Positions 1,010 to 13,402 of a stretch of 13,402 bases of DNA are shown here, in pieces. The position numbers were made by a program, and so were the translations under genes. Numbering within the stretch: position 1 is the stretch's first letter; each line of letters starts with the position of its first letter. This stretch comes from Candidatus Fermentibacterales bacterium (GTDB lineage Bacteria > Fermentibacterota > Fermentibacteria > Fermentibacterales > JAFGKQ01). Below the pieces are notes generated by a model. The model saw only the letters and a list, made by a program, of their open reading frames with translations, had not been told where the DNA came from and made no database searches. The DNA lies in assembly GCA_016928495.1 (NCBI GenBank), contig JAFGKQ010000143.1:1-13402 (forward strand), in the 5' to 3' direction.

Positions 1010-2047
1010 ATGCGCTACGTTTCTCGGGCTAATCTCAAGCTTCTTCTGGATGACCTGAGCGGGCAGTATCGGGTCTTCGTGCCGGTCCGGAAGAAGGACA
1101 GCCGGTTCTACAGCCGGTACGAGGGAAGCATGGACGACGTCGTCATAGGCGAGGTCCGGGCGTTCGAGCCGCTGAAGGCCTTCTTCTTCCCGGCAGTGGA
1201 GAAGGTGGCGGAGGGCTTCTCCGGGGGGTCCTTCCCTCACGAGAAGGACCGGCCCGTCTGCATCGTAGGCGTCAAGGCCTGCGATCTCAAGGGCTTCAAG
1301 GTCCTGGACCACGTGTTCGGCCAGGAGGACGAGTACCCCGATCCTTCCTACATCAAGCGCAGGGCAGAGAACCTGATCATCTCGTCCGACTGCACCATGG
1401 CCATCGAGACATGCTTCTGCCTCGCACTCGGGCTGAAGCCGTTCCCTCAGGAGGACTTCGACATCAACCTGTCTCCCGTGGGCGACGGCTTCTTCGTCTT
1501 CGTGGGCTCCGACAAGGGCAAGCAGATAGTGGAGAGGCACGCGGGCCTGTTCGAGGAGCCGGGCGAGGAGCTCTCCTCGGCCCAGGAGAAGTCGCGGCTT
1601 CGGGTCATCCGCGAGGTCGAGAGGAACATCGAGGAGCACGGGGTGCCGTCGCAGGACCGTTACCAGGGCATCATCGAGAAGGGCTACGAGTCGGCCGTCT
1701 GGAAGGACGAGGCCGAATCCTGCGTGGAGTGCGGGGCCTGCAACACCATCTGCCCCACCTGCCACTGCTTCCTGCTCTACGAGCAGATGAAGGGCGACGA
1801 GGAGTTCGCGAGGTTCCGGATGTGGGACTCCTGCCTCATAAAGGACTTCGCCAGGGTTGGGGGGGGAGACAACCCCAGGGAGCACCTCTGGATGAGGCTG
1901 CGCAACCGCTTCGAGAAGAAGTTCGACTACTTCAGGAAGGTCGCCGACATCTACGCCTGCACGGGGTGCGGGAGGTGCATCTCGGCGTGTCCGGCGAAGA
2001 TCGATATCAGAGACGTCCTGAGGAAGCTGGTTGAAGAGAATGAGTAG
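1010..2047 (+). CDS. HydB/AsrA-like dicluster iron-sulfur subunit of the electron-input module
   Basis: The product has 345 residues. The C-terminal third carries two ferredoxin-type [4Fe-4S] motifs: C238-x2-C241-x2-C244-x3-C248-P, immediately followed by T-C251-H-C253-F, and C317-x2-C320-x2-C323-x3-C327-P. The CPTCxCF continuation after the first motif is characteristic of the sulfhydrogenase beta (HydB) and anaerobic sulfite reductase A (AsrA) family. The N-terminal domain holds further conserved cysteines (C84, C91, C128, C135, C137). In that family this protein wires a FAD/[2Fe-2S] partner to a catalytic subunit; the partner is encoded directly downstream with an 8-base overlap. No siroheme AsrC gene is present, so the context favours hydrogenase electron transfer over sulfite reduction. 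The start at 1010 is supported by AGGAG at 1001-1005 and by its position as first gene of the operon. The product is cytoplasmic, with no signal peptide or membrane segment. Confidence 0.88.
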   Translation: MRYVSRANLKLLLDDLSGQYRVFVPVRKKDSRFYSRYEGSMDDVVIGEVRAFEPLKAFFFPAVEKVAEGFSGGSFPHEKDRPVCIVGVKACDLKGFKVLDHVFGQEDEYPDPSYIKRRAENLIISSDCTMAIETCFCLALGLKPFPQEDFDINLSPVGDGFFVFVGSDKGKQIVERHAGLFEEPGEELSSAQEKSRLRVIREVERNIEEHGVPSQDRYQGIIEKGYESAVWKDEAESCVECGACNTICPTCHCFLLYEQMKGDEEFARFRMWDSCLIKDFARVGGGDNPREHLWMRLRNRFEKKFDYFRKVADIYACTGCGRCISACPAKIDIRDVLRKLVEENE

Positions 2048-2879
2048 CTCACCCATCTCCGACAATCCGTACAGGTCCATCAGGGCCGAGGTCCAGAGGG
2101 TCATCCCCGAGACGCCGACCATAAAGACCATCCGCATGAAGCTGACGGAGGACCTGCCGTTCAGGCCCGGCCAGTTCATCGAGATGTCCATCCCCGGAAG
2201 CGGAGAGGCTCCCTTCACCCCTTCCTCTCCCTGCTACCAGAAGGAGCACATGGACGTCACCGTCATGAAGGTCGGCAAGGTGACGGAGCTGATCCACAGG
2301 CTCGAGCCCGGGGACACCGTGGGACTGCGCGGCCCCTTCGGAAGGGGCTATCCCCTGGATGACTTCGCCGGCAAGGAAGTGCTCGTGGTCGGGGGAGGCG
2401 TCGGCTTCGCCCCCCTCAGGACGCTGATGTACTCCCTCTTCGAGATGAGGGACAGGCTGGCACGCCTGATCTACAGGGGTGGCTGCAGGTGCCCGGAGGA
2501 GCTCCTCTACACCGACGAGATCAAGGGCTGGGGCGACAGACCGGACCTGGACATGGTGCTCTGCGTGGACGCCTGCACCCTCGAGGACCGCTGGGACGGC
2601 CCGGTCGGCGTCGTGACCACCGTGCTGGACGGCATCGACTTCAACCCCCGGAACGCCGTCGGTGTGGCCTGCGGGCCGCCCATCATGATGAAGTTCACGA
2701 CCTACAAGTTCCAGGAGCTGGGCATACCCGACGAGAACATCTACCTCTCGATGGAGAAGAACATGTCGTGTGGTATCGGCAAGTGCGGCCACTGCAGGAT
2801 CGGGAGCTACTACTGCTGCAAGGACGGGCCGGTCTTCACCTATGCCGAGATCAAGGACTTCCCTGGGATCTGGGACTGA
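2040..2879 (+). CDS. HydG/AsrB/PyrK-like FAD, NAD(P) and [2Fe-2S] oxidoreductase subunit
   Basis: The product has 279 residues from the ATG at 2040, which overlaps the previous gene by 8 bases; a TTG at 2031 would add three residues and is less likely. The domain order is that of sulfhydrogenase gamma and PyrK. An N-terminal FAD barrel contains R42-PGQF. A Rossmann domain begins with the glycine-rich stretch at 114-124 (VLVVGGGVGFAP) and includes the late CGPPIMM motif (211-217). A C-terminal [2Fe-2S] loop carries C244, C249, C252 and C260, in the order C-GIGK-C-GH-C ... C-KDGPVF. Family role: NAD(P)H oxidation or NAD(P)+ reduction, passing electrons to the HydB-like partner. This subunit is the best reason to think the hydrogenase exchanges electrons with pyridine nucleotides. 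An oddity is C149 and C151 in the segment G-C-R-C-P, where relatives usually have an uncharged, cysteine-free G-A-R-x-P. Whether it prefers NADH or NADPH cannot be read by eye. Confidence 0.88.
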   Translation: MSSSPISDNPYRSIRAEVQRVIPETPTIKTIRMKLTEDLPFRPGQFIEMSIPGSGEAPFTPSSPCYQKEHMDVTVMKVGKVTELIHRLEPGDTVGLRGPFGRGYPLDDFAGKEVLVVGGGVGFAPLRTLMYSLFEMRDRLARLIYRGGCRCPEELLYTDEIKGWGDRPDLDMVLCVDACTLEDRWDGPVGVVTTVLDGIDFNPRNAVGVACGPPIMMKFTTYKFQELGIPDENIYLSMEKNMSCGIGKCGHCRIGSYYCCKDGPVFTYAEIKDFPGIWD

Positions 2880-2880
2880 T

Positions 2881-3468
2881 ATGGACGCAAAACTGAGACC
2901 GAAGACCGCAACGAGCGCCGAGCAGATCCACCACGGCAGGGTCGAGATGGCCCCGCTGGCGGGCCCCGACCACAGGCTGTTCGTCGACCTGGACGTGTGC
3001 GCCGCGGGGGAGTGCAAGGAGTGCGTGGTCAGGTGCAGCTACCCGTTCCACCCGACCGGCCTGAACAACGGGATCATCTCGGTTGCGGAGCTGGCCAGCT
3101 ACTACCTGGTCTGCCGGCGCTGCGAGGAGCCGCACTGCGTGAACGCCTGTCCCAGGGACGCGCTCGAGCAGCAGGAAGACAAGGACAGGATGCTGGTCCG
3201 GCACACCATGCGCTGCATAAGCTGCAGATCCTGCTCTCACGCCTGCCCTTACGGCACTATCTACCCCGAGCTGGTGCCTCAGCTCGCGAGCAACTGCGAC
3301 TTCTGCCTGGGCAGAAGGGAGCACCCGGAGGAGCCTCTGTGCGTCAGCACCTGCCCCTACGGGGCGCTCCGTCTCGAGCCCGGGGACATGGAGCTGGACG
3401 AGAACACCTTCCTGGTGGGCAACTGCCTGATCGTCCACTCGACTCACTGGAACAGGGATAGAGCATGA
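2881..3468 (+). CDS. HycB/CooF-like ferredoxin subunit with four [4Fe-4S] motifs
   Basis: The product has 195 residues. Sixteen cysteines fall into four clusters typical of polyferredoxin electron-transfer subunits (HycB, HydN, CooF, DmsB type): C40/45/48/52, C78/81/86/90, C112/115/118/122 and C139/142/154/158. C182 is extra. The first motif has C-x4-C-x2-C-x3-C spacing rather than C-x2-C. The last carries an 11-residue insert between its cysteine pairs, as is normal in this family. There is no signal peptide or membrane helix. Lying between the FAD module and the hydrogenase core, it is the natural wire linking the HydB/HydG-like pair to the small subunit or to the MbhN-like protein; this assignment is inferred from position. 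The ATG at 2881 is one base after the preceding stop, with GGGA at 2872-2875. A longer reading from 2770 would overlap the conserved [2Fe-2S] region of the previous gene and is rejected. Confidence 0.87.
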   Translation: MDAKLRPKTATSAEQIHHGRVEMAPLAGPDHRLFVDLDVCAAGECKECVVRCSYPFHPTGLNNGIISVAELASYYLVCRRCEEPHCVNACPRDALEQQEDKDRMLVRHTMRCISCRSCSHACPYGTIYPELVPQLASNCDFCLGRREHPEEPLCVSTCPYGALRLEPGDMELDENTFLVGNCLIVHSTHWNRDRA

Positions 3469-4388
3469 TCTACCTTTTCTACCTCCTGGTGTACGGCTTC
3501 CTGTTGACCGCCGCCCTGGGGCTGTTCGCGAGCTGGGTCGACAGGAAGGTTACCGCAAGGGTCCAGTACAGGATCGGGCCGCCATTGCTCCAGCCCCTTA
3601 TCGACATAGTCAAGCTCATGGGCAAGGAGACTCTGATCCCACGGGGAGCCTCGAGGAACACCTTCCTGCTCTCCCCGGTGGCAGGCCTCTCGAGCGTGAT
3701 CCTGGCGTCGGCCCTGCTCTGGGTGGTCGGCCTCAGGCCCGGCGATGGGTTCCTCGGAGACTGGATCGTGGCGATCTACCTGCTGACGATTCCCTCAATA
3801 TCGATAATCGTCGGCGGTTTCGCTTCCGGGAACCCGCTGGCCAGCCTGGGCTCGTCCCGCGAGATGAAGCTGGTGCTGGCCTACGAGCTTCCCTTCGTTC
3901 TGGCGGCCCTGGTCCCCGTGATCAGGGCGGGGCTGATCCTCAGGCTCGGCGACATAGTGGTGGCACAGCAGATCGCGGGAGCAACCGCGACCAGCCTTTC
4001 GGGCATCATAGCCCTGATCGTGGCGATACTCTGCGTTCAGGCCAAGCTCGCTCTGGTTCCCTTCGACATACCCGAGGCCGAGACGGAGATCATCCACGGG
4101 CCGCTCGTGGATTACTCCGGGAGCTCCCTCGCGCTCTACAGGCTCATGAAGAACATGCTGCTGTTCACGCTGCCGTTCTTCCTGGTGATCCTCTACCTGG
4201 GCGGCATACGTCTGACCGGCATCCACATCCTCTGGTCCGTGCTCAAGTACCTGGTGCTCGTCGCGATCATCACGGTGATCAGAAACACCAACCCGCGCGT
4301 CAGGATCGACCAGGCCCTCAGGTTCTTCTGGGGGCCGGTGACCATACTCTCGGTGATAGCGGTCGTCCTCGCGGTGCTTGGCTTGTAG
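3465..4388 (+). CDS. NuoH/MbhM/EchB-like membrane anchor subunit
   Basis: The product has 307 residues and is strongly hydrophobic, with about eight transmembrane helices (first at about 3-22). It shows the NuoH hallmarks: a D26-R27-K28 stretch followed by a cytoplasmic loop R32-VQYRIGPP (NuoH has E-R-K here); a second loop SREMKLVLAYELP (131-143) with E133 and E141; and the acidic DIPEAETEI loop (201-209). In complex I and Mbh this subunit docks the hydrogenase module on the membrane arm, and the charged residues form the start of the ion pathway (the quinone cavity in complex I, closed or absent in hydrogenases). Its ATG overlaps the previous stop as ATGA (3465-3468), indicating translational coupling. 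It is placed before the catalytic genes, whereas in Pyrococcus mbh it follows the large subunit. Confidence 0.92.
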   Translation: MIYLFYLLVYGFLLTAALGLFASWVDRKVTARVQYRIGPPLLQPLIDIVKLMGKETLIPRGASRNTFLLSPVAGLSSVILASALLWVVGLRPGDGFLGDWIVAIYLLTIPSISIIVGGFASGNPLASLGSSREMKLVLAYELPFVLAALVPVIRAGLILRLGDIVVAQQIAGATATSLSGIIALIVAILCVQAKLALVPFDIPEAETEIIHGPLVDYSGSSLALYRLMKNMLLFTLPFFLVILYLGGIRLTGIHILWSVLKYLVLVAIITVIRNTNPRVRIDQALRFFWGPVTILSVIAVVLAVLGL

Positions 4389-4431
4389 CGAGTCATGTTG
4401 ATGGAACGCAAAGGAGCGGAGCTCTAGCGAG

Positions 4432-4857
4432 ATGAGCATGAAGCTGAAGGCTCTCCTGAAATCCCCGTGGGTCTTCCACCTCTCGACGGGCAGCTGCAAC
4501 AACTGCGACATAGAGGTGCTGGACTGCCTCACGCCAAGGTTCGACATCGAGAGGTTCGGCATGCTCCTCGCCGGGAGCATCAAGCATGCCGATGTCCTTC
4601 TCGTCACCGGATCCTGCAACCGCATGTCCGTCGAGAGAATGAAGAGGATGTACGAGCAGGTGCCCAGACCGTGCCTGGTCGTCGCCATAGGCGAGTGCGC
4701 GCTGTCGAGGGGCATGTTCATCCACAGCTACAACTGCCCCGTCCCCCTAGACCAGATTATCCCCGTTGACGTCTACATCCCCGGGTGCCCGCCCAAGCCC
4801 GAGGCGATCATAGCCGGGGTGGTAAAACTCATAGAAAAGGTCGGCTCGAAGACATGA
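4432..4857 (+). CDS. [NiFe]-hydrogenase small subunit, NuoB/MbhJ/EchC-like
   Basis: The product has 141 residues, the short soluble form typical of group 4 hydrogenases. It has the proximal [4Fe-4S] ligand pattern: C22 and C25 in TGSCNNCDIE, C89 in GECALS, and C119 in the IPVDVYIPGCPPKPE signature. There is no Tat signal, so it faces the cytoplasm. It passes electrons to the [NiFe] site of the large subunit encoded two genes downstream. Additional cysteines C32, C62, C81 and C102 are present, and the usual S-G-G after the third ligand reads S-R93-G. The 43-base gap upstream is one of the two largest in the operon. GGAG at 4418-4421 fits the ATG at 4432; a second ATG at 4438 would remove two residues. 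Arg codons are almost all AGG/AGA, in line with neighbours. Confidence 0.93.
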   Translation: MSMKLKALLKSPWVFHLSTGSCNNCDIEVLDCLTPRFDIERFGMLLAGSIKHADVLLVTGSCNRMSVERMKRMYEQVPRPCLVVAIGECALSRGMFIHSYNCPVPLDQIIPVDVYIPGCPPKPEAIIAGVVKLIEKVGSKT

Positions 4858-5327
4858 CGCGCGAGGAAGTCCTTAAAGACATACGCTCCAAGTTCGAGGG
4901 AGAGATCCTCGACTTCTGCGACAAATCGCCCCACAGGGTCTACATGGAGATCAGACCCGAGGCGATAGTCCCGATGGCGAGCCATCTCTTCCTGGACCTG
5001 GGTGCCAGGTTCAACATCGCGTCCGGGATGGACATGATGGATCGCATCGAGATCCTCTACCACCACACCCTGGAGGACCTGAACCTCATGATCTCGCTCA
5101 GGGTCAGGCTCGATCGCGACAACCCCGAGATAGACTCCATGGGCGCCAAGCTCGAGGCGTACAACTGGATCGAGAGGGAGATCGCGGAGATCCTTGGCGT
5201 GAGGTTCCGGGGGCATCCGGACATGCGCCACCTGCTGCTTGCCGACAACTGGCCCGATGGGGTCTACCCGCTGCGCCAGGACTACGAGGAGTGGGACCCC
5301 TCCGCCATCCGGGACAGGGGTGTGTGA
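4854..5327 (+). CDS. NuoC/MbhK/EchD-like subunit
   Basis: The product has 157 residues from the ATG at 4854, which overlaps the upstream stop as ATGA. The C-terminal half carries the 30-kDa complex I signature: N104-WIEREIAEILGVRF, then GHPDMRHLLL and the closing P-L-R-Q-D-Y. The N-terminal half is a mixed alpha/beta domain with low conservation. The family has no cofactor; it forms a scaffold on the large subunit and in complex I is fused to NuoD in some lineages. It is separate here. The next start overlaps its stop as TGATG, suggesting equal output with the large subunit. A reading from 4785 would run across the conserved C-terminus of the small subunit and is rejected. Confidence 0.9.
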   Translation: MTREEVLKDIRSKFEGEILDFCDKSPHRVYMEIRPEAIVPMASHLFLDLGARFNIASGMDMMDRIEILYHHTLEDLNLMISLRVRLDRDNPEIDSMGAKLEAYNWIEREIAEILGVRFRGHPDMRHLLLADNWPDGVYPLRQDYEEWDPSAIRDRGV

Positions 5328-6514
5328 TGGGCAGGACCATAGTACCCATCGGACCCTATCATCCCCTCCAGGAGGAGCCGGAGTTCTTCTCGCTCACCGT
5401 GGAGGGAGAGCGGGTCGTAGACATAGACGTCCGCATCGGCTACAACCATCGCGGCATAGAGAAGCTGTCGGAGCGCAAGAACTTCGACCAGTCCACCTTC
5501 GTGATCGAGCGCATCTGCGGCATCTGCAGCACCAGCCATCCCTTCGCCTACACCAGGGCTGTCGAGGACATCTTCCCGATGGATGTGCCCGAGCGGGCGA
5601 AGTACATAAGGACCATCATAGCGGAGGGCGAGAGGATCCACTCTCACCTGCTCTGGCTGGGCCTCGCAGGCCATTTCCTGGGTTACAACACGGTGTACAT
5701 GTGGGTGTGGAAGCTCCGCGAGGAGATCCTCGACGCGATGGAGATACTCTCCGGCAACAGGAACAACTACGCGATGTTCAAGCCGGGCGGCGTCAGGAGG
5801 GACATAAAGGAGAGCGACATTCCCGACGTTCTCCGCAAGGTCGAATCCATTGTCGGAACCCTGGAGATGCTACGGGACGCCATTATGGACGACCCGGTGA
5901 TTCATGCCAGGACCAAGGGCGTAGGCGTCCTCACGAAGGAGAAGTCCATCGAGTTCAGCGCGCTCGGGCCCACCTCCAGGGCCTCCGGCGTTGCCCGTGA
6001 CGTCAGGAAGGATTCTCCGTACGCGGTCTACGACCGGCTGGACTGGGACATGATAGTGACCCAGAACGGCGACGTGTTCGACAAGGTCGTTGTCAGGGTG
6101 CTCGAGATGCTCGAGTCGGTGAAGATCATACGCGCCTGCTTGCTGAACCTGCCCGGCGGTGAGATCGACGCGAAGATAAAGAACGTGCCTCCGGGTGAAG
6201 GTGTCGGTCACATCGAGGCTCCGCGTGGTGAGACCTTCCACTACGTCCGCTCCGATGGAACAAACAGGCCGGTGCGCCACAAGGTCAGGGCCCCGACCTT
6301 CATGAACCTGCCGACCTACAAGGCGACGGTGGTGGGTGAGACGATCTCGGACGCTACGATCATCCTGGCCGCGATCGACCCCTGCTACTGCTGCACCGAG
6401 AGAATGGCGGTCAGGGATGTGGATGGGGCAAGGCTCTACGACGGCCAGGACCTCATCCGTCTGTCGCAGTTGAAGACCGAGAGACTCAGGAAGGAGCTGG
6501 GATTCGGATCATGA
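5327..6514 (+). CDS. [NiFe]-hydrogenase large subunit, MbhL/EchE/NuoD-like, group 4
   Basis: The product has 395 residues. Both nickel-binding motifs are intact. L1 is E61-RICGIC with C64 and C67, followed by STSHP. L2 is D351-P-C353-Y-C355-C356-TER, giving the required C-x2-C. These four cysteines separate it from complex I NuoD and from sulfane-reducing Mbs/Mbx enzymes, in which the set is incomplete. An R in place of the final H of L2 is usual for group 4. C355, adjacent to ligand C356, is unusual. A 35-residue tail follows TERM; whether it is removed is unclear, but a HycI-type endopeptidase gene closes the operon, which suggests processing near the L2 motif. Role: reversible 2H+ + 2e- to H2 on the cytoplasmic side of the membrane. 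The start at 5327 is preceded by GGGG at 5317-5320. Confidence 0.95.
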   Translation: MGRTIVPIGPYHPLQEEPEFFSLTVEGERVVDIDVRIGYNHRGIEKLSERKNFDQSTFVIERICGICSTSHPFAYTRAVEDIFPMDVPERAKYIRTIIAEGERIHSHLLWLGLAGHFLGYNTVYMWVWKLREEILDAMEILSGNRNNYAMFKPGGVRRDIKESDIPDVLRKVESIVGTLEMLRDAIMDDPVIHARTKGVGVLTKEKSIEFSALGPTSRASGVARDVRKDSPYAVYDRLDWDMIVTQNGDVFDKVVVRVLEMLESVKIIRACLLNLPGGEIDAKIKNVPPGEGVGHIEAPRGETFHYVRSDGTNRPVRHKVRAPTFMNLPTYKATVVGETISDATIILAAIDPCYCCTERMAVRDVDGARLYDGQDLIRLSQLKTERLRKELGFGS

Positions 6515-8205
6515 GCTTCGACTTCCTGAAAGACCCGCAACTCTTCAGGTACGACGCTCTCTCGAAGTTCGTAGGAGTGTTCGTGGCCCTGTTCTTCGTG
6601 CTGGTCGTGATCTACTCGATCGGCTACATGCGAGGAAGAAAGGGCCTGCTCCGCTACTATCTCTGCACCCTGGCGACGTTCGTAGCGTCCCTGGGAGCGG
6701 TCTTCGCCAACAACATGCTGGTCTTCCTCTGCTTCTGGGGCTTCCTGGGGCTCCTGCTCTACCTGCTGATAGCCTTCGGGCGCAACGAGAGGACCCCGGC
6801 GACCGCGAAGAAGGCCTTCATCATCATCGGCGGCTCCGATGCCCTGATGCTGCTGGGCATAGTCATCCTCTGGCAACTCAACGGGCCGGGGGAGCCGATG
6901 TCCATCCTCTCGCTGAGGATGGATGCGCTGAGCCAGCCGCTCAACGGGAGCCTGGCCGTGCTGGGATACCTCTGCCTGGCTGCCGGGGCACTCGCCAAGG
7001 CCGGGGCGATGCCCTTTCATACCTGGGTGCCCGACACGGCGGAGGACGCGCCGATACCGGTCACCGCCTACCTCCCCGCGTCACTCGACAAGCTGCTCGG
7101 CATCTACTTCCTGGGCAGGCTCTCGCTCGAGGTCTTCAGGATGACCACGGGCATGAATACCGTGCTCATGGCGTTGGGCAGCTTTACTATCATAGCTGCG
7201 GTGATGATGGCCCTCATCCAGCACGACATGCGCAGGCTGCTCGGGTACCATGCCGTCAGCCAGGTGGGCTACATGATCCTGGGCATCGGCACAGGCAACC
7301 CGATCGGGATCGCCGGCGGGCTCTTTCACATGCTGAACAACGCGATCTACAAGTCCTGCCTCTTCCTTTCCGCCGGCGCGGTCTCGAAGAGGGCGGGGAC
7401 GAACGACCTGGCGAAGCTGGGAGGTTTCGCGAGGGTGATGCCGGTCACCTTCAGCACCTTCCTGATTTCGTCGCTCGCGATCTCGGGGGTGCCGCCGTTC
7501 AACGGATTCGCAAGCAAGTGGCTGGTCTACCAGGGCGTGATAGAGACGGGGCAGAGCGGGGGCGACCTCTGGGTGGTGTGGCTGGTGGCTGCCATGTTCG
7601 GCAGCGCGCTGACGCTGGCGAGCTTCATGAAGCTGACCCACTCGATCTTCCTTGGTCAGCCGAGCACCGACGTGCCCGCGGAGCAGATGCTGAAGCGCAG
7701 GGAAACCGGCTTCAGCATGTGGCTGCCGACAGTCGTTCTGGCGTTTCTCAGCGTAGTGTTCGGCGTTTTCGCGCTTCAGGTACCGCTTCGGCTGTTCGTG
7801 TTCCCCAGCATCGGCGGGGATGTCGTGGCGCCGGGCATATGGAGCTCGGGACTGGCCTCTCTGCTTCTGGTCATCGGCATCGTCGTCGGCTTCCTGATCT
7901 ACCTTGCAGGCTCTCTCAGGAAGAGCCGCCTCGTCGAGCCCTTCGTGGGCGGAGAAGACCTCTCCAAGATGCCCGAGATGCGCGTGTCGGGAGTGGACTT
8001 CTACGAAACCGTTCAGGGTACGGGCGTGCTGAAGGGCATATACCGTGCTGCATTGAAGAAGCTGTTCGACATCTACGATGTGCTCGCGGGGTTCTTAGGC
8101 TGGATCGGGCAGGGGCTTGCGGCTCTGCATAATGGTATCCTGCCCAGGTACTTGAGCTGGTGCCTGGTGGGAATGGTCGTGCTCTTCTTCGTCCTGATTA
8201 GGTAG
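6511..8205 (+). CDS. Antiporter-like membrane subunit (EchA/MbxH'-like) in the MrpA position
   Basis: The product has 564 residues and about 13-14 transmembrane helices. It belongs to the NuoL/M/N-MrpA/D antiporter family. Seen: FHTWVPD (169-175) with the helix-7 lysine K163 just before it; a TAYLPASLDKLLG stretch (185-197) typical of Ech-type rather than Mrp-type members; K281; helix-12 K336 in GFASKW; and a charged C-terminal stretch (about 470-545) before a last helix, resembling the lateral helix of NuoL. Oddities: the family's helix-5 W-E motif reads W76-G77; the N-H-x-x-F-K motif reads N276-N277-A-I-Y-K; and the conserved R-Y-D-A-L-S normally preceded by two helices starts at residue 13, so helices 1-2 are missing. 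The start is fixed by an ATGA overlap (6511-6514). Its place directly before MbhD/E- and MrpB-like genes is that of MrpA. Confidence 0.88.
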   Translation: MSFDFLKDPQLFRYDALSKFVGVFVALFFVLVVIYSIGYMRGRKGLLRYYLCTLATFVASLGAVFANNMLVFLCFWGFLGLLLYLLIAFGRNERTPATAKKAFIIIGGSDALMLLGIVILWQLNGPGEPMSILSLRMDALSQPLNGSLAVLGYLCLAAGALAKAGAMPFHTWVPDTAEDAPIPVTAYLPASLDKLLGIYFLGRLSLEVFRMTTGMNTVLMALGSFTIIAAVMMALIQHDMRRLLGYHAVSQVGYMILGIGTGNPIGIAGGLFHMLNNAIYKSCLFLSAGAVSKRAGTNDLAKLGGFARVMPVTFSTFLISSLAISGVPPFNGFASKWLVYQGVIETGQSGGDLWVVWLVAAMFGSALTLASFMKLTHSIFLGQPSTDVPAEQMLKRRETGFSMWLPTVVLAFLSVVFGVFALQVPLRLFVFPSIGGDVVAPGIWSSGLASLLLVIGIVVGFLIYLAGSLRKSRLVEPFVGGEDLSKMPEMRVSGVDFYETVQGTGVLKGIYRAALKKLFDIYDVLAGFLGWIGQGLAALHNGILPRYLSWCLVGMVVLFFVLIR

Positions 8206-8210
8206 AAGAG

Positions 8211-8771
8211 ATGTTTATTCTAATCGTGCTGCTCGGCTTGATGATAATGGGCGCGTTGGTCGCTGTGGAGGCAAAGAACCTCCTGTCTGCAGTCATCGCC
8301 ATAGGCACAGCAGGGCTGGGCCTCTCCATAGCTTTCCTCTTGCTGAAGGCCCCCGACGTGGCCATCACGCAGTTGGTCGTGGAGATCATGGCGGTGGTGA
8401 TACTCATCAGGGCCACCATCCGGCAGGGGCTGCCTTCCTCTCCGATGGACAGCAGACCTCTCGGAGTCGTCATTGCCCTGGGCTTCGTCGCCGTGCTCTT
8501 CCTGGCGGCGATACCGGTGCTCGAGAGCATCCCGGAGTTCGGGGACCCGGTGATGAGGGTCTCCCGGAGCTACGTAGACGGGACCTGGAGGCTGAGCGGC
8601 TCGACCAACGTGGTGGCCTCTGTCATTCTGGACTACAGGGCCTACGACACTCTGGGCGAAGCTACGGTCCTGTTCACGGCCGTTGTCGGCGTGCTTGCGG
8701 TGACCAGGCTGTCGGGGCGCAGGGAGCAGAAGGACGGGGCACAGGAAGCGGAGCAGGGGGCGGGACGATGA
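8211..8771 (+). CDS. MbhD-MbhE fusion (MrpA C-terminal-like) membrane subunit
   Basis: The product has 186 residues. Two modules that are separate genes in Pyrococcus mbh are joined here. Residues 1-70 are MbhD-like (DUF4040), with E20-A-K22-N-L and the L-L-K46-A-P-D49-V-A-I-T-Q stretch ending in V-V-E58-I. Residues 85-168 are MbhE-like, with N133-VVASVILDYRAYDTLGE150-A-T. The same two modules occur in fused form at the C-terminus of MrpA, so with the preceding gene this makes a split MrpA. About five to six helices are visible; the tail (169-186) is hydrophilic. The charged residues listed are those expected to line a Na+/H+ path in Mrp-type complexes. The ATG lies five bases after the previous stop, with only a GAAGAG directly against it, so initiation may depend on coupling. 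Confidence 0.87.
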   Translation: MFILIVLLGLMIMGALVAVEAKNLLSAVIAIGTAGLGLSIAFLLLKAPDVAITQLVVEIMAVVILIRATIRQGLPSSPMDSRPLGVVIALGFVAVLFLAAIPVLESIPEFGDPVMRVSRSYVDGTWRLSGSTNVVASVILDYRAYDTLGEATVLFTAVVGVLAVTRLSGRREQKDGAQEAEQGAGR

Positions 8772-9220
8772 GCAAGGAGCGCCAGCCGGGGATGACCCTG
8801 ATCGTCAAGACGGTGACGCGTCTGACGGTCGGTCTGATCCTGCTCTACGGGATCTACGTCGTGACGCACGGCCACCTGACCCCCGGGGGAGGGTTCGCCG
8901 GCGGCGTCGTGATAGCCCTGTCTCTCGTCCACCTGATGCTGGCCTTCGGCGGGGATGTCGCGTTCAAGACTCTGTCGAAGTCCGGCGCGGCCGTTCTGGA
9001 GGCCATCGGCGCCCTTCTCTTCGTCGGAATAGCCATCATCGGCTTCGGCTGGGCGGGGTTCTTCTTTAACTTCCTTCCGAAGGGCACGCCGTTCGACCTG
9101 TTCAGCGCTGGCATCATACCGCTCTGCAACATAGCGATCTCCCTGAAGGTCGGGGCCGGGCTCTTCTCGGTCGTGATCGCGATCGTCTTCCTGAGGGTTG
9201 CCGGATCGGAGAGGGAGTAA
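8768..9220 (+). CDS. MrpB/MnhB/MbhF-like subunit
   Basis: The product has 150 residues and four likely transmembrane helices. The MnhB signature G35-H-L-T-P-G-G-G-F-A-G-G is at 35-46, and the conserved P118-L-C-N-I-A-I-S-L-K-V-G-A-G stretch lies before the last helix. In Mrp antiporters and Mbh this small subunit is part of the membrane arm involved in Na+ translocation; the exact residues are not settled by sequence alone. Its length is usual for the family. The start overlaps the preceding stop as ATGA (8768-8771), and its own stop shares a base with the next start (TAATG, 9218-9222). Confidence 0.92.
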   Translation: MSKERQPGMTLIVKTVTRLTVGLILLYGIYVVTHGHLTPGGGFAGGVVIALSLVHLMLAFGGDVAFKTLSKSGAAVLEAIGALLFVGIAIIGFGWAGFFFNFLPKGTPFDLFSAGIIPLCNIAISLKVGAGLFSVVIAIVFLRVAGSERE

Positions 9221-9561
9221 TGGCCGTTTACGTACTCTGCCTGGTTCTGTTCTGCGTGGGGATCTACGCCATACTGTCCAAGCGTAACCTCATAAAGATC
9301 ATCATCGGGCTCATCGTGGCCGAGCACGCGGTCAACCTCTTCTTCATCCTCGTTGCCTACAGGATCGGCGGGAGGGCCCCGATATTCGAGCCACCGCCCG
9401 TCTCGATAGAGCCGATGGTGGACCCGCTGCCGCACGCGCTCGTGCTGACCGCAATAGTCATAGGCATCGCCACCACGGCTTTCATGGTCGCTCTGGCGAT
9501 GAGGATCTACGAGAAGTACGGCACCTATGACATAGCCAGGATACGGGAGCTCAGAGGATGA
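9220..9561 (+). CDS. MrpC/MnhC/MbhG (NuoK-like) subunit
   Basis: The product has 113 residues and three transmembrane helices, the NuoK fold. Helix 2 carries the conserved glutamate as V33-A-E35-H-A-V-N-L. The loop and helix-3 signature D68-PLPHALVLTAIVIGIATTA is the family hallmark. It is expected to pair with the MrpD-like antiporter subunit encoded next and to carry part of the ion path. Length and motifs match ordinary MrpC proteins and nothing is missing. It starts in a TAATG overlap and ends in an ATGA overlap. Confidence 0.94.
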   Translation: MAVYVLCLVLFCVGIYAILSKRNLIKIIIGLIVAEHAVNLFFILVAYRIGGRAPIFEPPPVSIEPMVDPLPHALVLTAIVIGIATTAFMVALAMRIYEKYGTYDIARIRELRG

Positions 9562-11060
9562 TGCCTACCTCTCCTGTCATTCCGCTGTTCGTGGCCGTTC
9601 CCCTGGCGGGAGCGTTCGCCATAGCGCTTCTGGGGAAGAAGACCCGGATCATCCCCAACGGCATGGCGCTGATAGTGACCGGCGGGCTCATAGCTTTCAG
9701 CATCATCGCGATGCGGATGTTCAGCCTGTTCGGCGTGCACACCTACAAGCTCGGAGCCTGGCCTGCCCCGTTCGGCATCGTGATGGTCCTCGACGGGCTC
9801 ACGGCCTTCATGCTGTTCACCGTCTCGCTGATAGCCTTCCTGGTCATCCTCTTCTCCATCAGTTACATGGAGAGGTACTCGGGAAGATGGCAGTTCTACA
9901 CCCTTTTCCTTCTCATGGTCGCCGGAATGAACGGCGTGATCGTCACGGGCGACATGTTCAACCTGTTCGTGTTCCTGGAGGTAGCTGCCGTTGCGAGCTA
10001 CGCGCTGGTTGCCTTCGGAACCGAGAAGCACGAGCTGGAGGCGGCGTTCAAGTACGCCGTGATGGGCTCCGTAGGGTCGCTGTTCGTGCTCCTTGCCATA
10101 GTCTGGCTCTACAGCTACACGTCCACGCTGAACATGGCTGACATGGCTCTTGCGCTGCAGGCAGCGGGCAGCACCAGGGTGGCCCTGGTCACTGGCGTGC
10201 TGCTGTTGACGGGGTTCGCTCTGAAGGCAGCCATCGTGCCGTTCCATGCATGGCTTCCGGACGCCCACCCGTCGGCGCCTGCACCGATATCGGCGATGCT
10301 GTCGGGTGTCCTCATCAAGGCGCTTGGGGTCTACGCGATCTGCAGGGTGTTCTACAGCGTGCTGGGCGTCAGCCCGCAGCTCTCGATGTTGCTCATGGTG
10401 CTGGGAGTGGTGTCGATGTCCGTAGGGGTGTTGCTGGCGCTGAGGCAATGGGACCTCAAGAGGCTGCTGGCCTACAGCTCCATCAGCCAGATCGGCTACA
10501 TCATGCTGGGCATCGGCATTGGCACTCCGCTGGGCTTCATGGCCGCCCTTTTCCATCTCTTCAATCACTCCGTGTTCAAGTCTCTTCTGTTCCTCGGCTC
10601 GGGCGCGGTGGAGTACGCGACCGGGACCAGGGACCTCCGTGAGATGGGGGGCCTGGGCAAAAGGATGAAGCTCACGAGTGCGGCGATGCTCTCCGGGTCC
10701 ATGTCCGTTGCGGGCATCCCGCCGTTCGCGGGCTTCTGGAGCAAGCTGCTCATCATCGTTGCGGCGGTCCAGGCCGGGTACTACTGGTTCGCGATAATAG
10801 CCGTGGTGGCCAGCATGCTCACTCTCTCCTACGTCATGCGCATCATGCGCTACGGTTTCCTGGGAGAGCTCCGTGAGAAATGGGCCGGAGTGCGCGAGGT
10901 CCCATTCATGATGAAGCTCTCTCTCGGGCTTCTCGCTCTCATCTGCATCCTGGGGGGGCTTCTTCTCCTCCCTGGCGCGCGGGAGTTCTTCCTGACTCAA
11001 GCCGCGAGAACGTTCTCTGTTGGTACGCAACTGGCATCCAGAATCCTGGGCGGGGTCTGA
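9558..11060 (+). CDS. MrpD/MnhD/MbhH antiporter subunit
   Basis: The product has 500 residues and about 14 transmembrane helices. It is a complete member of the proton-antiporter (NuoM-like) family. The channel residues expected in an active member are present: helix-5 E141 in F-V-F-L-E-V; helix-7 K223 in A-L-K-A-A-I-V-P-F-H; K254 in V-L-I-K-A-L-G; H337 and K341 in F-N-H-S-V-F-K; and helix-12 K396 in G-F-W-S-K. This contrasts with the EchA-like paralogue at 6511-8205, which lacks the glutamate and the histidine. In Mbh the equivalent subunit carries the proton path that drives Na+ export. Two adjacent ATGs exist (9558 and 9561); GGGAG at 9545-9549 suits either, and 9558 gives the ATGA overlap. 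Confidence 0.94.
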   Translation: MMPTSPVIPLFVAVPLAGAFAIALLGKKTRIIPNGMALIVTGGLIAFSIIAMRMFSLFGVHTYKLGAWPAPFGIVMVLDGLTAFMLFTVSLIAFLVILFSISYMERYSGRWQFYTLFLLMVAGMNGVIVTGDMFNLFVFLEVAAVASYALVAFGTEKHELEAAFKYAVMGSVGSLFVLLAIVWLYSYTSTLNMADMALALQAAGSTRVALVTGVLLLTGFALKAAIVPFHAWLPDAHPSAPAPISAMLSGVLIKALGVYAICRVFYSVLGVSPQLSMLLMVLGVVSMSVGVLLALRQWDLKRLLAYSSISQIGYIMLGIGIGTPLGFMAALFHLFNHSVFKSLLFLGSGAVEYATGTRDLREMGGLGKRMKLTSAAMLSGSMSVAGIPPFAGFWSKLLIIVAAVQAGYYWFAIIAVVASMLTLSYVMRIMRYGFLGELREKWAGVREVPFMMKLSLGLLALICILGGLLLLPGAREFFLTQAARTFSVGTQLASRILGGV

Positions 11061-11063
11061 CAG

Positions 11064-11576
11064 GTGAAAAGCAGAATCGTACTATTCATCGTCTCGTTGA
11101 TCGTCTGGTCTGCTCTCAGCTGGGCAGTGGACTGGCAGCACCTGGTGATCGGCGTGCTGGTGTCCGTGCTGGTTGCCGCAGCCGCGGGGGATCTCTTCGT
11201 GAGGAGACCCCACCTCCTTCGGCATCCGGCCCGATACTTCTACTTCCTGTTCGCCTATCTGCCTCTTCTTCTCTGGGAGATAGTCAGGGCGAATCTGGAT
11301 GTCGCTATGAGGGTTCTCAATCCGGCTCTGCCGATCAGGCCCGGAATCGTGAAGATCAGGAGCAAGCTACGGTCCGAGACCGGGCTCACCTTCCTCGCGA
11401 ACTCGATAACCCTCACGCCGGGAACGATGACCGTGGACGTGGATGCCGAGAGCGGGACGCTCTACATCCACTGGATAGCCGTCAGATCGACTGACCCGGA
11501 GGAGGCCACGAAGGCGATAGCGGGCCGTTTCGAGCCGCTCCTGCTCAAGATATTCGAAGAGGATGTGGTAGAATGA
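11064..11576 (+). CDS. MrpE/MnhE/MbhA-like subunit
   Basis: The product has 170 residues. Two to three hydrophobic helices in the N-terminal half (about 4-20, 25-41, 58-73) are followed by a soluble domain holding the family signature: E105-TGLTFLANSITLTPGTM and the closely following T-V-D-V. MrpE is required for antiporter assembly in bacterial Mrp systems, and the homologous MbhA sits at the distal Mrp end of Mbh. It uses a GTG start at 11064, three bases after the previous stop, with GGGG at 11052-11055. The stop overlaps the next ATG (ATGA, 11573-11576). Confidence 0.92.
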   Translation: MKSRIVLFIVSLIVWSALSWAVDWQHLVIGVLVSVLVAAAAGDLFVRRPHLLRHPARYFYFLFAYLPLLLWEIVRANLDVAMRVLNPALPIRPGIVKIRSKLRSETGLTFLANSITLTPGTMTVDVDAESGTLYIHWIAVRSTDPEEATKAIAGRFEPLLLKIFEEDVVE

Positions 11577-11941
11577 GGGCGCTAAGGTGGACACTCGGGG
11601 CGATCGTCCTGATCGCCGTAATCGTCCTGATAATCCACAGGCCGCCGGCGATGCCTTTCTTCCCCGACATGCCCTTCGCGGGTTTCGTGACGCGGGCTCT
11701 CTACATACTGGTGCTGGCGGCGTTGCTGGTGCTCTTCAGGATAAGGAAAGGGCCCACGGCTGCGGACCGCGTCATGGCCATCGACATCCTCGGCGTACTG
11801 ATCGTGGGAATCTGTGCCGTGGTCTCGATAGCTACTCAGAGATCATGGTACATCGACATAGCCATCGCCTGGGCTCTCCAGAGCTTTATTGGAGCGCTTG
11901 CCTTCGCGAAGTACCTGGAGGGGCGGAGCTTCGATGATTGA
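11573..11941 (+). CDS. MrpF/MnhF/MbhB-like subunit with an extra N-terminal helix
   Basis: The product has 122 residues, about 30 more than the usual MrpF of roughly 90. The standard three-helix core occupies about 38-115 with its hallmark stretch R56-I-R-K-G-P-T-A-A-D-R-V-M-A-I-D and the helix-3 motif Y93-I-D-I-A-I-A-W. The extension (1-37) contains one more hydrophobic segment (about 7-22) and a Pro-rich linker (HRPPAMPFFPDMP). In the known complexes MrpF lies among the small subunits MrpC, MrpE and MrpG at the far end of the membrane arm. The start is fixed by the ATGA overlap; a later Met at residue 27 or 33 would restore typical length but would lose the overlap. Confidence 0.9.
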   Translation: MRALRWTLGAIVLIAVIVLIIHRPPAMPFFPDMPFAGFVTRALYILVLAALLVLFRIRKGPTAADRVMAIDILGVLIVGICAVVSIATQRSWYIDIAIAWALQSFIGALAFAKYLEGRSFDD

Positions 11942-12269
11942 TACTGTCGGACTCGTTTTCGTAGGCTTCGGCCTGTTCTTTGACCTCGCGGGTTGCCTGG
12001 GCCTTGTCAGACTGCCCGATGTCTACAACAGGCTCCAGGCCTCGACCAAGTGCGTCACTCTCGGCACATGCAGCATCCTGTTCGGGACGTTCCTGATCAC
12101 AGGGATCAACGGAGCTGGGATCAAAGCTCTGCTATGCATCGTGTTCGTGGCGCTCACCTCACCGGTCGCGGCTCACGCGATAGCGCGGGCCAGCCACAGA
12201 GGCGGGGTGAAGCTCTGGAAAGGGACCGTGGTCGACAGGTACGCCGAAGACCAGGAAGGTGAGGCCTAA
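11934..12269 (+). CDS. MrpG/MnhG/MbhC-like subunit
   Basis: The product has 111 residues from the ATG at 11934, which overlaps the mrpF-like gene by 8 bases. GGAG at 11925-11928 lies five bases upstream and decides this start; a reading from 11889 would add 15 non-conserved residues. Three helices are visible (about 4-22, 43-58, 64-85). Signatures are G23-L-V-R-L-P-D-V-Y-N-R-L-Q-A and the helix-3 L74-T-S-P-V-A-A-H-A-I-A-R. It is the last of the Mrp-type genes, so the order A(split)-B-C-D-E-F-G is complete. C21, C40, C46 and C68 are extra cysteines without known role. Confidence 0.93.
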   Translation: MIDTVGLVFVGFGLFFDLAGCLGLVRLPDVYNRLQASTKCVTLGTCSILFGTFLITGINGAGIKALLCIVFVALTSPVAAHAIARASHRGGVKLWKGTVVDRYAEDQEGEA

Positions 12270-12273
12270 GCCC

Positions 12274-12298
12274 GGGCTGTCCGACTCCGTCGGAGCCC
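12274..12298 (+). other. Intergenic hairpin between the Mrp block and the mbhN-like gene
   Basis: GGGCT (12274-12278) and CCGAC (12281-12285) pair with GTCGG (12289-12293) and AGCCC (12294-12298), giving a 10-bp stem with a 2-base bulge and a 3-base loop. No U-tract follows. It lies inside the 44-base gap and may act in mRNA processing, stability or partial attenuation. Chance cannot be excluded. Confidence 0.35.
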
Positions 12299-12313
12299 CT
12301 GCCGGATGGTGAG

Positions 12314-12928
12314 ATGAAGTATCCGAAGATCAGAGAGCTCGCTGAGGCGATAAAGGCGGTAGTGCATGGCCCCTACACCTCGCGCTTCCCGAAGGAGGCC
12401 CACGTTCCGCACCCCAACTTCAGGGGCCAGCCGAAGTTCGATGAGAGCAAATGCGTCGGGTGCTGCGGCTGCGAGGAGATCTGCCCCGTGGAGGCCATAG
12501 CCCACAGGGACGTAGTGGACGATGCGGGGCCGCCCAGGCGGCTGATGATCCACTACACCGATACCTGCATCTTCTGCGGCGAGTGCGAGGCCGCGTGCAT
12601 TGCCGACAACGAGGGAATAAAGCTCTCGACCGACTGGGAGCTCTCGTTCTTCGACAGGAAGCAGTCCTACGAGACGATCGAGAAGGAGCTCGTCCTGTGC
12701 GAGATCTGCGGGGATCCGATCGCCTGCAAGGACCATCTGCTCTGGATATCCGAGAGGATCGGCGAGCTTGCCTACTCCAACCCCACGCTCTACCTGGCCA
12801 GGCTGAGGGCGCTGGGGATAGCCGACGAGAACATCGTCTCGGCCCTGAAGGACGACTGGCGGTCCGACCGCGTGAAGATCCTCTGCGCCAGGTGCCGCAG
12901 GGAGACCACCCTCACAACAGCCGACTGA
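12314..12928 (+). CDS. NuoI/MbhN/HycF-like 2x[4Fe-4S] subunit with extra C-terminal Cys motifs
   Basis: The product has 204 residues. The N-terminal stretch (HPNFRGQP, 33-40) and two ferredoxin motifs identify the NuoI family: C47-x2-C50-x2-C53-x3-C57-P and C85-x2-C88-x2-C91-x3-C95. In Mbh this subunit takes electrons from ferredoxin and hands them to the small subunit. Here it could instead receive them from the HycB-like protein, or serve as a second entry point. Beyond the ferredoxin core, L128-C129-E-I-C132-G-D-P-I-A-C138 and C191-A-R-C194 form two C-x2-C pairs that could hold a metal. Similar tails occur in HycF/HyfH-like proteins but not in plain NuoI. No membrane segment is present. 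The start at 12314 has a GGATGGTGAG purine-rich leader. It is separated from the other catalytic genes by the whole Mrp block. Confidence 0.9.
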   Translation: MKYPKIRELAEAIKAVVHGPYTSRFPKEAHVPHPNFRGQPKFDESKCVGCCGCEEICPVEAIAHRDVVDDAGPPRRLMIHYTDTCIFCGECEAACIADNEGIKLSTDWELSFFDRKQSYETIEKELVLCEICGDPIACKDHLLWISERIGELAYSNPTLYLARLRALGIADENIVSALKDDWRSDRVKILCARCRRETTLTTAD

Positions 12929-13402
12929 GTGAGCCTTCCGGCCGACCTACTGAGTTTCCTCGAGACAACCGGGGAGGGCAGGCTGGTCATTGCCTGCATC
13001 GGGAACGCGCTGCGCAGCGACGACGGTTTCGGCCCGCGCCTTGCCGCGGAGCTCGGGGCGCGGGCACTCCGGAACACGATCGTGCTGGACTGCGGCACGA
13101 CCCCCGAGAACCAGGTCGGACCCATTGCCAGGGAAGCCCCGGGTGCGGTACTGATCGTGGATGCGGTCCACCTCGGAGAGGCGCCCGGGACCATGCGGCT
13201 ACTGGGCGCGGACGAGATCTCGCGTAGCGGCCTGACGACCCATGACCTGTCACCGTCGATGTTCCTCGAGAGGCTCATTGCGAGCCTGCCGGAAGGCTGC
13301 CGGGTGCGTATGCTGGCTGTTCAGCCGGCTTCGGTGGCCTTCGGCGAAGGGCTGAGCGGGGAGCTCGAGCAAGCCCTCTCGGCCCTCCTGAAGCTATTAT
13401 GG
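12929..13402 (+). CDS. HycI-type hydrogenase maturation endopeptidase, runs off the window
   Basis: There are 158 codons to the window edge with no stop seen; the length already equals that of E. coli HycI, so only a few residues can be missing. Peptidase M52 features: C23-I-G-N-A-L-R-S-D31-D32-G-F-G; a glycine-rich D54-C-G-T-T-P-E-N loop; L75-I-V-D78-A; and L102-T-T-H105-D-L-S-P. By alignment with HycI, D32, D78 and H105 are the nickel-sensing ligands. Role: it removes the C-terminal extension of the large subunit after Ni insertion, and the obvious substrate is the large subunit at 5327-6514. The GTG start follows directly on the previous stop with no clear ribosome-binding site. Codon use differs from the neighbours: only 3 of 11 Arg codons are AGR, which may reflect low expression or separate origin. 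Confidence 0.88.
   Translation, partial: MSLPADLLSFLETTGEGRLVIACIGNALRSDDGFGPRLAAELGARALRNTIVLDCGTTPENQVGPIAREAPGAVLIVDAVHLGEAPGTMRLLGADEISRSGLTTHDLSPSMFLERLIASLPEGCRVRMLAVQPASVAFGEGLSGELEQALSALLKLLW

What the first reader, a model, noticed from the sequence alone, without database searches (positions are those of the whole stretch)
1010..13402. A one-operon NAD(P)-linked, Mrp-coupled [NiFe] hydrogenase (proposed 'Nuo-like' Mbh)
Seen: 17 contiguous, mostly overlapping genes combine a HydB/HydG-like pyridine-nucleotide module, a four-cluster HycB-like wire, an Ech/Mbh hydrogenase core, two antiporter-like subunits, a full set of Mrp small subunits, a NuoI-like protein and its maturation protease. 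Known: Pyrococcus Mbh is ferredoxin-driven with one antiporter subunit; soluble sulfhydrogenases use HydB/HydG with NADPH; complex I is the respiratory relative. Inference: this assembly joins both and could couple NAD(P)H/H2 exchange, perhaps with ferredoxin as a second donor, to Na+ or H+ transport. By canonical motifs it would carry nine [4Fe-4S] and one [2Fe-2S] centres. Such a machine would let a fermenter adjust H2 production by membrane energy. Related clusters may exist in other anaerobes; I cannot check.
Basis: partly seen in the sequence, partly recalled or inferred. Interest (0 to 1): 0.85.

Follow-up and report, generated by a model that had tools for sequence, protein, structure and literature searches.

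The report
NADH-wired, ion-coupled group 4g hydrogenase
A 17-gene operon, kept in the same order across many uncultured anaerobic bacteria, encodes a membrane hydrogenase of a class whose electron donor is unknown, and its conserved NAD(P)H-reading and wiring parts suggest that it swaps electrons between NADH and hydrogen gas while moving ions.

Summary
Window 1010-13402 carries 17 same-strand, mostly overlapping genes: HydB/HydG pyridine-nucleotide module, four-cluster HycB-like protein, [NiFe] core, NuoL/MrpA-like and MrpD-like subunits, Mrp small subunits, NuoI-like protein and protease. The window is a whole contig of a Fermentibacterota genome; the protease runs off its end. It is a HydDB group 4g hydrogenase: the large subunit is 69% identical to the only group-4 hit in Ca. 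Saelkia, typed 4g. The block is a conserved unit. All 21 Fermentibacterota and all 47 sampled Omnitrophota HydB orthologues lie in it, or on contigs that end inside it. A variant with a molybdopterin subunit is published (PMC6349859). Best reading: a reversible, ion-coupled NAD(P)H:H2 oxidoreductase. Donor, ion and direction are untested.

The parts
1010..2047 (+). hydB: sulfhydrogenase beta/AsrA-like Fe-S subunit (345 aa), two canonical [4Fe-4S] motifs plus seven more invariant Cys
   Evidence: Fer4_22; ShyB/HydB models, below cut-off; P. furiosus SHI beta 9nez_B E=5e-44; Cys conservation 70-71 of 71
2031..2879 (+). hydG: FAD/NAD(P)-binding subunit with [2Fe-2S] (start TTG 2031 or ATG 2040)
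   Evidence: SHI gamma 9nez_C E=6e-60; C247, C252, C255, C263 71/71
2881..3468 (+). hycB-like ferredoxin, four [4Fe-4S] motifs
   Evidence: Fer4_11; DmsB/NrfC-type; 16 Cys ligands conserved, the first cluster's in 66-73 of 74
3465..4388 (+). NuoH/MbhM-like membrane anchor
   Evidence: PF00146 E=4e-64
4432..4857 (+). NuoB/MbhJ/HycG-like small subunit, proximal [4Fe-4S]
   Evidence: PF01058; C22, C25, C89, C119 83/83
4854..5327 (+). NuoC/MbhK-like subunit
   Evidence: PF00329
5327..6514 (+). [NiFe] large subunit (395 aa), RICGIC and DPCYCC motifs
   Evidence: PF00346 and PF00374; MbhL 6cfw E=8e-92, HycE 7z0s E=4e-85; Ni ligands 86/86
6511..8205 (+). NuoL/MrpA-N-like antiporter subunit (564 aa); TM5 Glu replaced by Gly, TM7/TM8/TM12 Lys kept
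   Evidence: PF00361; MbhH, NdhF, MrpA hits; Gly in 68 of 75
8211..8771 (+). MbhD+MbhE fusion (MrpA C-terminal part)
   Evidence: PF13244, PF20501
8768..9220 (+). MrpB/MbhF-like
   Evidence: PF04039
9220..9561 (+). MrpC/MbhG-like
   Evidence: PF00420
9558..11060 (+). MrpD/MbhH-like antiporter subunit, Glu/Lys/Lys/Lys set complete
   Evidence: PF00361 E=5e-75; MbhH and MrpD; residues
11064..11576 (+). MrpE/MbhA-like
   Evidence: PF01899
11573..11941 (+). MrpF/MbhB-like
   Evidence: PF04066
11934..12269 (+). MrpG/MbhC-like
   Evidence: PF03334
12314..12928 (+). NuoI-like subunit of HycF type: two [4Fe-4S] plus C-terminal CxxC-x58-CxxC quartet
   Evidence: HycF model best of NCBIfam; 7z0s_F best of PDB; 12 Cys invariant; spacing
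12929..13402 (+). HycI-type [NiFe] maturation protease, runs off the contig end
   Evidence: PF01750; TIGR00072

Best explanation
One membrane complex, a HydDB group 4g [NiFe] hydrogenase with its own electron-input arm. NAD(P)H binds HydG (FAD, [2Fe-2S]). Electrons pass through HydB, the four clusters of the HycB-like subunit, the two of the HycF-type subunit and the one of the small subunit to the [NiFe] site, where H+ is reduced to H2. The reaction is near equilibrium, so the complex should run both ways. It is coupled through the NuoH-like anchor to Na+/H+ movement in a full Mrp-type arm, so that the ion gradient can push NADH-dependent H2 release at higher H2, or be charged when H2 is low or being oxidised. 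Shown here: gene content, motifs, conserved linkage, co-variation, and Rex association in relatives. Inferred: assembly, electron order, donor, ion and direction.
For: HydB and HydG match P. furiosus NADPH-sulfhydrogenase beta and gamma over nearly their whole length. hydBG-hycB directly precede the hydrogenase core in Fermentibacterota and other phyla. Every HydB orthologue in two phyla lies in this operon or at a contig end inside it; 45 of 193 Omnitrophota have both genes, 3 only nuoD, 2 only hydB, all five explained by contig ends or an N run. Distances of hydB, hydG, hycB, nuoD and nuoI correlate at 0.80-0.87, those of mrpD only at 0.47-0.60. The HycF-type tail with its Cys quartet occurs with HydBG-HycB and is absent in two sister Omnitrophota hydrogenases that lack them. 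In E. coli FHL this tail contacts HycB. Rex operators (at least 12 of 14 positions) upstream of 17 of 66 operons against 0.24 in shuffles; rex gene directly upstream in 14; either in 24.
Against: No biochemistry for group 4g was found, and HydDB lists it as putatively ferredoxin-coupled. No Rex operator was found in Fermentibacterota, the window included (best 10 of 14). Rex also controls a ferredoxin-dependent Ech in Caldicellulosiruptor (PMC6391272), so Rex alone does not prove NADH oxidation. Neither HydB nor HydG reaches a curated cut-off of any named NCBIfam family. No structure of the assembly was computed.
Confidence: 0.62

Rival explanations
1. Ferredoxin is the main donor, entering at the HycB- or HycF-like subunit as HydDB supposes for group 4g. 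HydBG is a side exit that passes some electrons to NAD(P)+, so the complex is a branched ferredoxin to H2 and NAD(P)H machine.
For: HydDB label. Authors assume a ferredoxin donor for group 4g. Ferredoxin is the donor of the related P. furiosus MBH. Forward ion pumping is thermodynamically easier from ferredoxin (own knowledge).
Against: No ferredoxin-specific docking feature was identified. The HycF-type tail and HycB mark a bound donor module as in FHL, whereas two sister hydrogenases without HydBG have the short MbhN-like form.
Confidence: 0.22
2. Electron confurcation: NADH and reduced ferredoxin are used together to make H2, like HydABC, in addition to ion coupling.
For: Two possible entry points (HydG; HycB/HycF). 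Unassigned invariant cysteines in HydB leave room for an extra cofactor.
Against: Only one flavoprotein is recognised in the operon; no second flavin domain such as NfnB or a NuoF-type subunit.
Confidence: 0.06
3. HydBG brings another substrate (sulfite, sulfur, polysulfide) as AsrAB or sulfhydrogenase would, so the operon links sulfur reduction to H2.
For: AsrB and AsrA models are among the best named models; P. furiosus sulfhydrogenase reduces sulfur (cites this).
Against: No AsrC/sirohaem subunit is in the operon; AsrAB themselves are the NADH-reading part of sulfite reductase (own knowledge).
Confidence: 0.04
4. HydBG and HycB are co-transcribed but form a separate soluble enzyme.
For: No structure of the joint complex was computed.
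Against: Strict adjacency across phyla, absence together with the hydrogenase in several Fermentibacterota genera, and co-variation.
Confidence: 0.06

Closest known systems
HydDB [NiFe] group 4g (Ca. Saelkia and other Omnitrophota, PMC8542988)
   Same: Large subunit 69% identical to the only group-4 hit of Saelkia, which carries the same operon (L103); Mrp-linked
   Different: Published text for group 4g assumes a ferredoxin donor and, in the papers read, does not describe HydB/HydG/HycB/HycF
Enigmatic group 4 hydrogenase of Saganbacteria RX5A (PMC6349859)
   Same: Group 4 core, Mrp subunits, AsrA/AsrB (= HydB/HydG) and CooF (= HycB-like); nearest relatives Zixibacteria and Omnitrophica
   Different: It has an extra unclassified molybdopterin oxidoreductase, seen here in L125, L126, L129 and L132 but not in the window
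E. coli formate hydrogenlyase (group 4a, PDB 7z0s)
   Same: HycB, HycF with C-terminal Cys quartet, HycG/HycE core
   Different: Donor is FdhF, not HydBG; no Mrp small subunits; CxxC-x34-CPxC against CxxC-x58-CxxC
P. furiosus MBH (group 4d, PDB 6cfw)
   Same: Large subunit best PDB match; MbhA-H equivalents
   Different: MBH has one antiporter-like subunit, a short MbhN, ferredoxin as donor and no HydBG/HycB
P. furiosus sulfhydrogenase I (group 3b, PDB 9nez)
   Same: HydB and HydG subunits
   Different: Soluble group 3b core, no membrane arm
Thermococcus Fdh2-Mfh2-Mnh2 (group 4b, own knowledge)
   Same: Donor module plus group 4 core plus Mrp module in one cluster
   Different: Formate dehydrogenase as donor module

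Membership tests
HydDB [NiFe] group 4g | Large subunit clusters with HydDB 4g sequences | tested here: met
   69% identity to the only group-4 hit of Saelkia, whose paper assigns 4g; one clade of 86, support 0.78, apart from MbhL, HycE and Nqo4. HydDB itself was not run
HydDB [NiFe] group 4g | Intact CxxC...CxxC [NiFe] ligands | tested here: met
   C64, C67, C353, C356 in 86 of 86
HydDB [NiFe] group 4g | Ferredoxin as donor (putative label) | not testable with these tools
   HydDB itself calls the role undetermined
Mbh, group 4d | One antiporter-like subunit plus MbhA-G and short MbhN, no donor module | tested here: not met
   Two antiporter-like subunits, HycF-type NuoI, HydBG and HycB present
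Formate hydrogenlyase, group 4a | HycB/HycF wire | tested here: met
Formate hydrogenlyase, group 4a | FdhF formate dehydrogenase in the complex, no Mrp small subunits | tested here: not met
   No Mo-pterin gene in the window; Mrp E, F, G present
NAD(P) sulfhydrogenase, group 3b | Group 3b large and small subunits with HydB/HydG | tested here: not met
   HydB and HydG present but the core is group 4
Complex I (Nuo) | Quinone site in place of [NiFe], NuoEFG | tested here: not met
   [NiFe] ligands intact; no NuoE/F/G
Mrp antiporter module | MrpA-G complement | tested here: met
   MrpA split into two genes (6511-8205, 8211-8771), B, C, D, E, F, G; ion activity not testable
Rex regulon | Rex operator upstream | tested here: inconclusive
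   Strong in Omnitrophota, Zixibacteria and a Clostridia MAG; best only 10 of 14 in the window

The most novel reading that the evidence does not exclude
HydBG-linked group 4g enzymes are a distinct bioenergetic machine: an ion-gated NADH:H2 valve with an FHL-like wire and a full Mrp arm, under NADH/NAD+ (Rex) control in part of its range, and widely used by uncultured fermenters to release NADH electrons as H2 at the cost or gain of sodium-motive force.
Probability: 0.45. Interest if true: 0.72.

Novelty: new variant of a known kind. Interest (0 to 1): 0.55.

Why it matters
Group 4g is the [NiFe] class that HydDB lists with undetermined role, and papers assign it ferredoxin by default. Conserved HydBG-HycB-HycF input arms in at least Omnitrophota, Fermentibacterota, Zixibacteria and Spirochaetota (and, by record titles, other phyla) make a specific, testable donor prediction. 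If right, it changes the energy budgets inferred for many uncultured anaerobes: fermenters could dispose of NADH as H2 without a bifurcating [FeFe] hydrogenase, with the ion gradient setting the limit. It also shows input modules being exchanged on one [NiFe]-Mrp chassis (formate dehydrogenase, HydBG, HydBG plus a molybdopterin subunit), which bears on the origin of complex I.

Tried and rejected
Placement as Mbh (4d), FHL (4a) or complex I was tested and rejected (membership table). NADH against NADPH from HydG sequence: the nucleotide-site segment is variable and gave no verdict. Rex operator in Fermentibacterota: not found; their hydB upstream regions instead show a conserved TTGACA-like element close to the start codon. 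One apparent exception (G078/L136, hycB without hydBG) fell away because the 6 kb upstream reads N. G061, G236, G127, G194 and the split Omnitrophota cases are contig ends. 'of' needs a genome handle. One region request was over-long.
Full report
What is there. The window is the whole of contig C233 (13402 bases) of a 2.3 Mb genome, completeness 81%. Its phylum is Fermentibacterota: a genome of the same order, G006, has the contig (335466 bases) that carries the title Candidatus Aegiribacteria sp. MLS_C in the named collection. From 1010 to the contig end lie 17 genes on the + strand, mostly overlapping or with a few bases between them. The protease gene is open at the contig end.

Cofactors. 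In an alignment of 86 large subunits the four Ni ligands are invariant. HydB keeps two ferredoxin motifs (70-71 of 71) and seven further invariant cysteines, most of which align to cysteines in P. furiosus sulfhydrogenase beta. HycB keeps four motifs, though 7-8 of 74 relatives lack ligands of the first. NuoB keeps its four ligands. The NuoI-like protein keeps eight plus a quartet C129, C132, C191, C194 (64/64 and 62/62). HydG keeps the four [2Fe-2S] ligands.

The wire. The NuoI-like subunit is best matched by HycF. In the structure of E. coli formate hydrogenlyase the chain runs FdhF, HycB (four), HycF (two), HycG (one), NiFe, with centres under 14 angstroms apart, and the HycF C-terminal tail contacts HycB and holds a metal by CxxC-x34-CPxC (PMC9474812). 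Here the tail has CxxC-x58-CxxC in 62 of 71 relatives and spacings of 57-61 in seven others. Two sister group-4 hydrogenases in Omnitrophota, 47% identical in the large subunit and without HydBG-HycB, have a NuoI-like protein of 125-135 residues without that quartet. So the tail goes with the donor module. I infer the order HydG, HydB, HycB, HycF, NuoB, NiFe.

Conservation. The gene order is the same in the other Fermentibacterota examined. Eighty named loci from the genome collection (of 311 that matched) show it in Omnitrophota, Elusimicrobiota, Hydrogenedentota, Atribacterota, Zixibacteria, a Clostridia MAG and others by record title, and rearranged in Spirochaetota. In Fermentibacterota, 21 HydB orthologues (52-59% identity) were found besides the window's: 18 sit upstream of the large subunit on one contig, and three are on contigs that end in hycB or nuoH. 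In 193 sampled Omnitrophota genomes, 48 have the large subunit and 47 HydB; 45 share both (Fisher p 8e-38). In 39 they are on one contig and strand, 3.1-4.1 kb apart, and every other case is a contig end or an N run. Pairwise distances of hydB, hydG, hycB, nuoD and nuoI correlate at 0.80-0.87, and those of mrpD with them at 0.47-0.60. This suggests that the redox arm evolves as one unit while antiporter parts are exchanged; the shared relatedness of the sequences was not removed from this figure.

Class. PMC8542988 assigns Ca. Saelkia tenebricola MAG 3300035698_749 a single identifiable hydrogenase, group 4g. L103 is from that MAG, its large subunit is 69% identical to the window's, it is the only group-4 hit in that genome at the threshold used, and it carries the same operon. 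HydDB describes 4g as loosely clustered with undetermined role, putatively ferredoxin-coupled (PMC5037454). In a quick FastTree the 86 sequences form one clade (support 0.78), separate from MbhL, HycE and Nqo4. HydDB itself was not run.

Regulation. In 14 of 66 operons with at least 1 kb upstream, a rex gene lies directly upstream on the same strand. In 17 of 66 a site matching the Rex operator TTGTGAA-N4-TTCACAA (PMC2883068) at 12 or more of 14 positions lies upstream of hydB or of rex. Dinucleotide shuffles give 0.24 on average, at most 2 in 200 runs, and 824 kb of downstream sequence holds two. Twenty-four of 66 have one or the other. They are Omnitrophota, Zixibacteria, a Clostridia MAG and records named only 'bacterium'. 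The loci are related, so the count is not of independent events. Rex senses NADH/NAD+, which fits an NADH-linked role, but Rex also controls a ferredoxin-dependent Ech in Caldicellulosiruptor (PMC6391272) and is predicted to control a CO-driven ECH (PMC13077300). The window has no convincing site (10 of 14).

What is known already. PMC6349859 reported in Saganbacteria RX5A an enigmatic group 4 hydrogenase with Mrp-like subunits, asrA, asrB, cooF and an unclassified molybdopterin oxidoreductase, nearest to Zixibacteria and Omnitrophica, and supposed an Mbh-like function. In L125, L126, L129 and L132 the gap between hydG and hycB holds one open frame of 566-641 aa that I read as molybdopterin-oxidoreductase-like (my reading of the sequence, not a family search). 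These four form one subclade (support 0.87). The window's form lacks that gene. Full-text searches found no paper that proposes NAD(P)H as donor for group 4g; supplements and most subscription journals were not searchable.

Mechanism. NADH (about -320 mV, own knowledge) to H2 (-414 mV standard, about -300 mV at a few pascals) is near equilibrium, so the complex should be reversible and gain or spend ion gradient with the H2 pressure. The genome also has RnfC over the family cut-off (G000:C109), so an Rnf could charge a Na+ gradient from ferredoxin that this complex spends to expel NADH electrons as H2. That is inference. The NuoL/MrpA-like subunit has Gly for the TM5 Glu in 68 of 75, while MrpD keeps the full set, so the two may not be equivalent pumps.

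Verdict. Real, conserved, and a new variant of a known kind. The donor prediction is the valuable part. It rests on homology, linkage and regulation, and on no biochemistry.

Noticed in passing
L125, L126, L129, L132 (between hydG and hycB): A molybdopterin-oxidoreductase-like gene (566-641 aa) is inserted, matching the published Saganbacteria RX5A form; it forms one subclade of the large-subunit tree.
   Followed up: partly
window 6511-8205 and relatives: NuoL/MrpA-like subunit lacks the TM5 glutamate (Gly in 68 of 75) but keeps the TM7, TM8 and TM12 lysines.
   Followed up: partly
window 1010-2047: Seven invariant HydB cysteines outside the two ferredoxin motifs, most also present in sulfhydrogenase beta: possible extra cluster.
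   Followed up: no
G000:C125 (L048, L147): A hydrogenase-related complex without the first [NiFe] CxxC motif (its 3' end is cut) and with antiporter-like subunits; a Rex gene lies on the same contig at 9226-9369.
   Followed up: partly
L047 1104-2603; L035 382-2300: A second [NiFe] large subunit, group 3c-like by eye; in L035 a relative and its protease lie about 2 kb upstream of the 4g operon.
   Followed up: no
window 5327-6514: Window and L035 large subunits group with Omnitrophota rather than other Fermentibacterota (weak support), suggesting transfer of the operon between phyla.
   Followed up: partly
L072 18251-21176: A glycyl-radical enzyme and its activase follow the operon in Aegiribacteria MLS_C (by eye).
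   Followed up: no
L145, L146: A second group-4 hydrogenase in Omnitrophota (47% identity) with several antiporter-like genes and no HydBG-HycB.
   Followed up: partly
L084, L099-L102: Spirochaetota loci have a rearranged order, with NuoI and in most cases the protease directly after NuoD, and more diverged Mrp genes.
   Followed up: no
window 122-778: 218-aa open frame upstream of hydB without a Pfam match.
   Followed up: no
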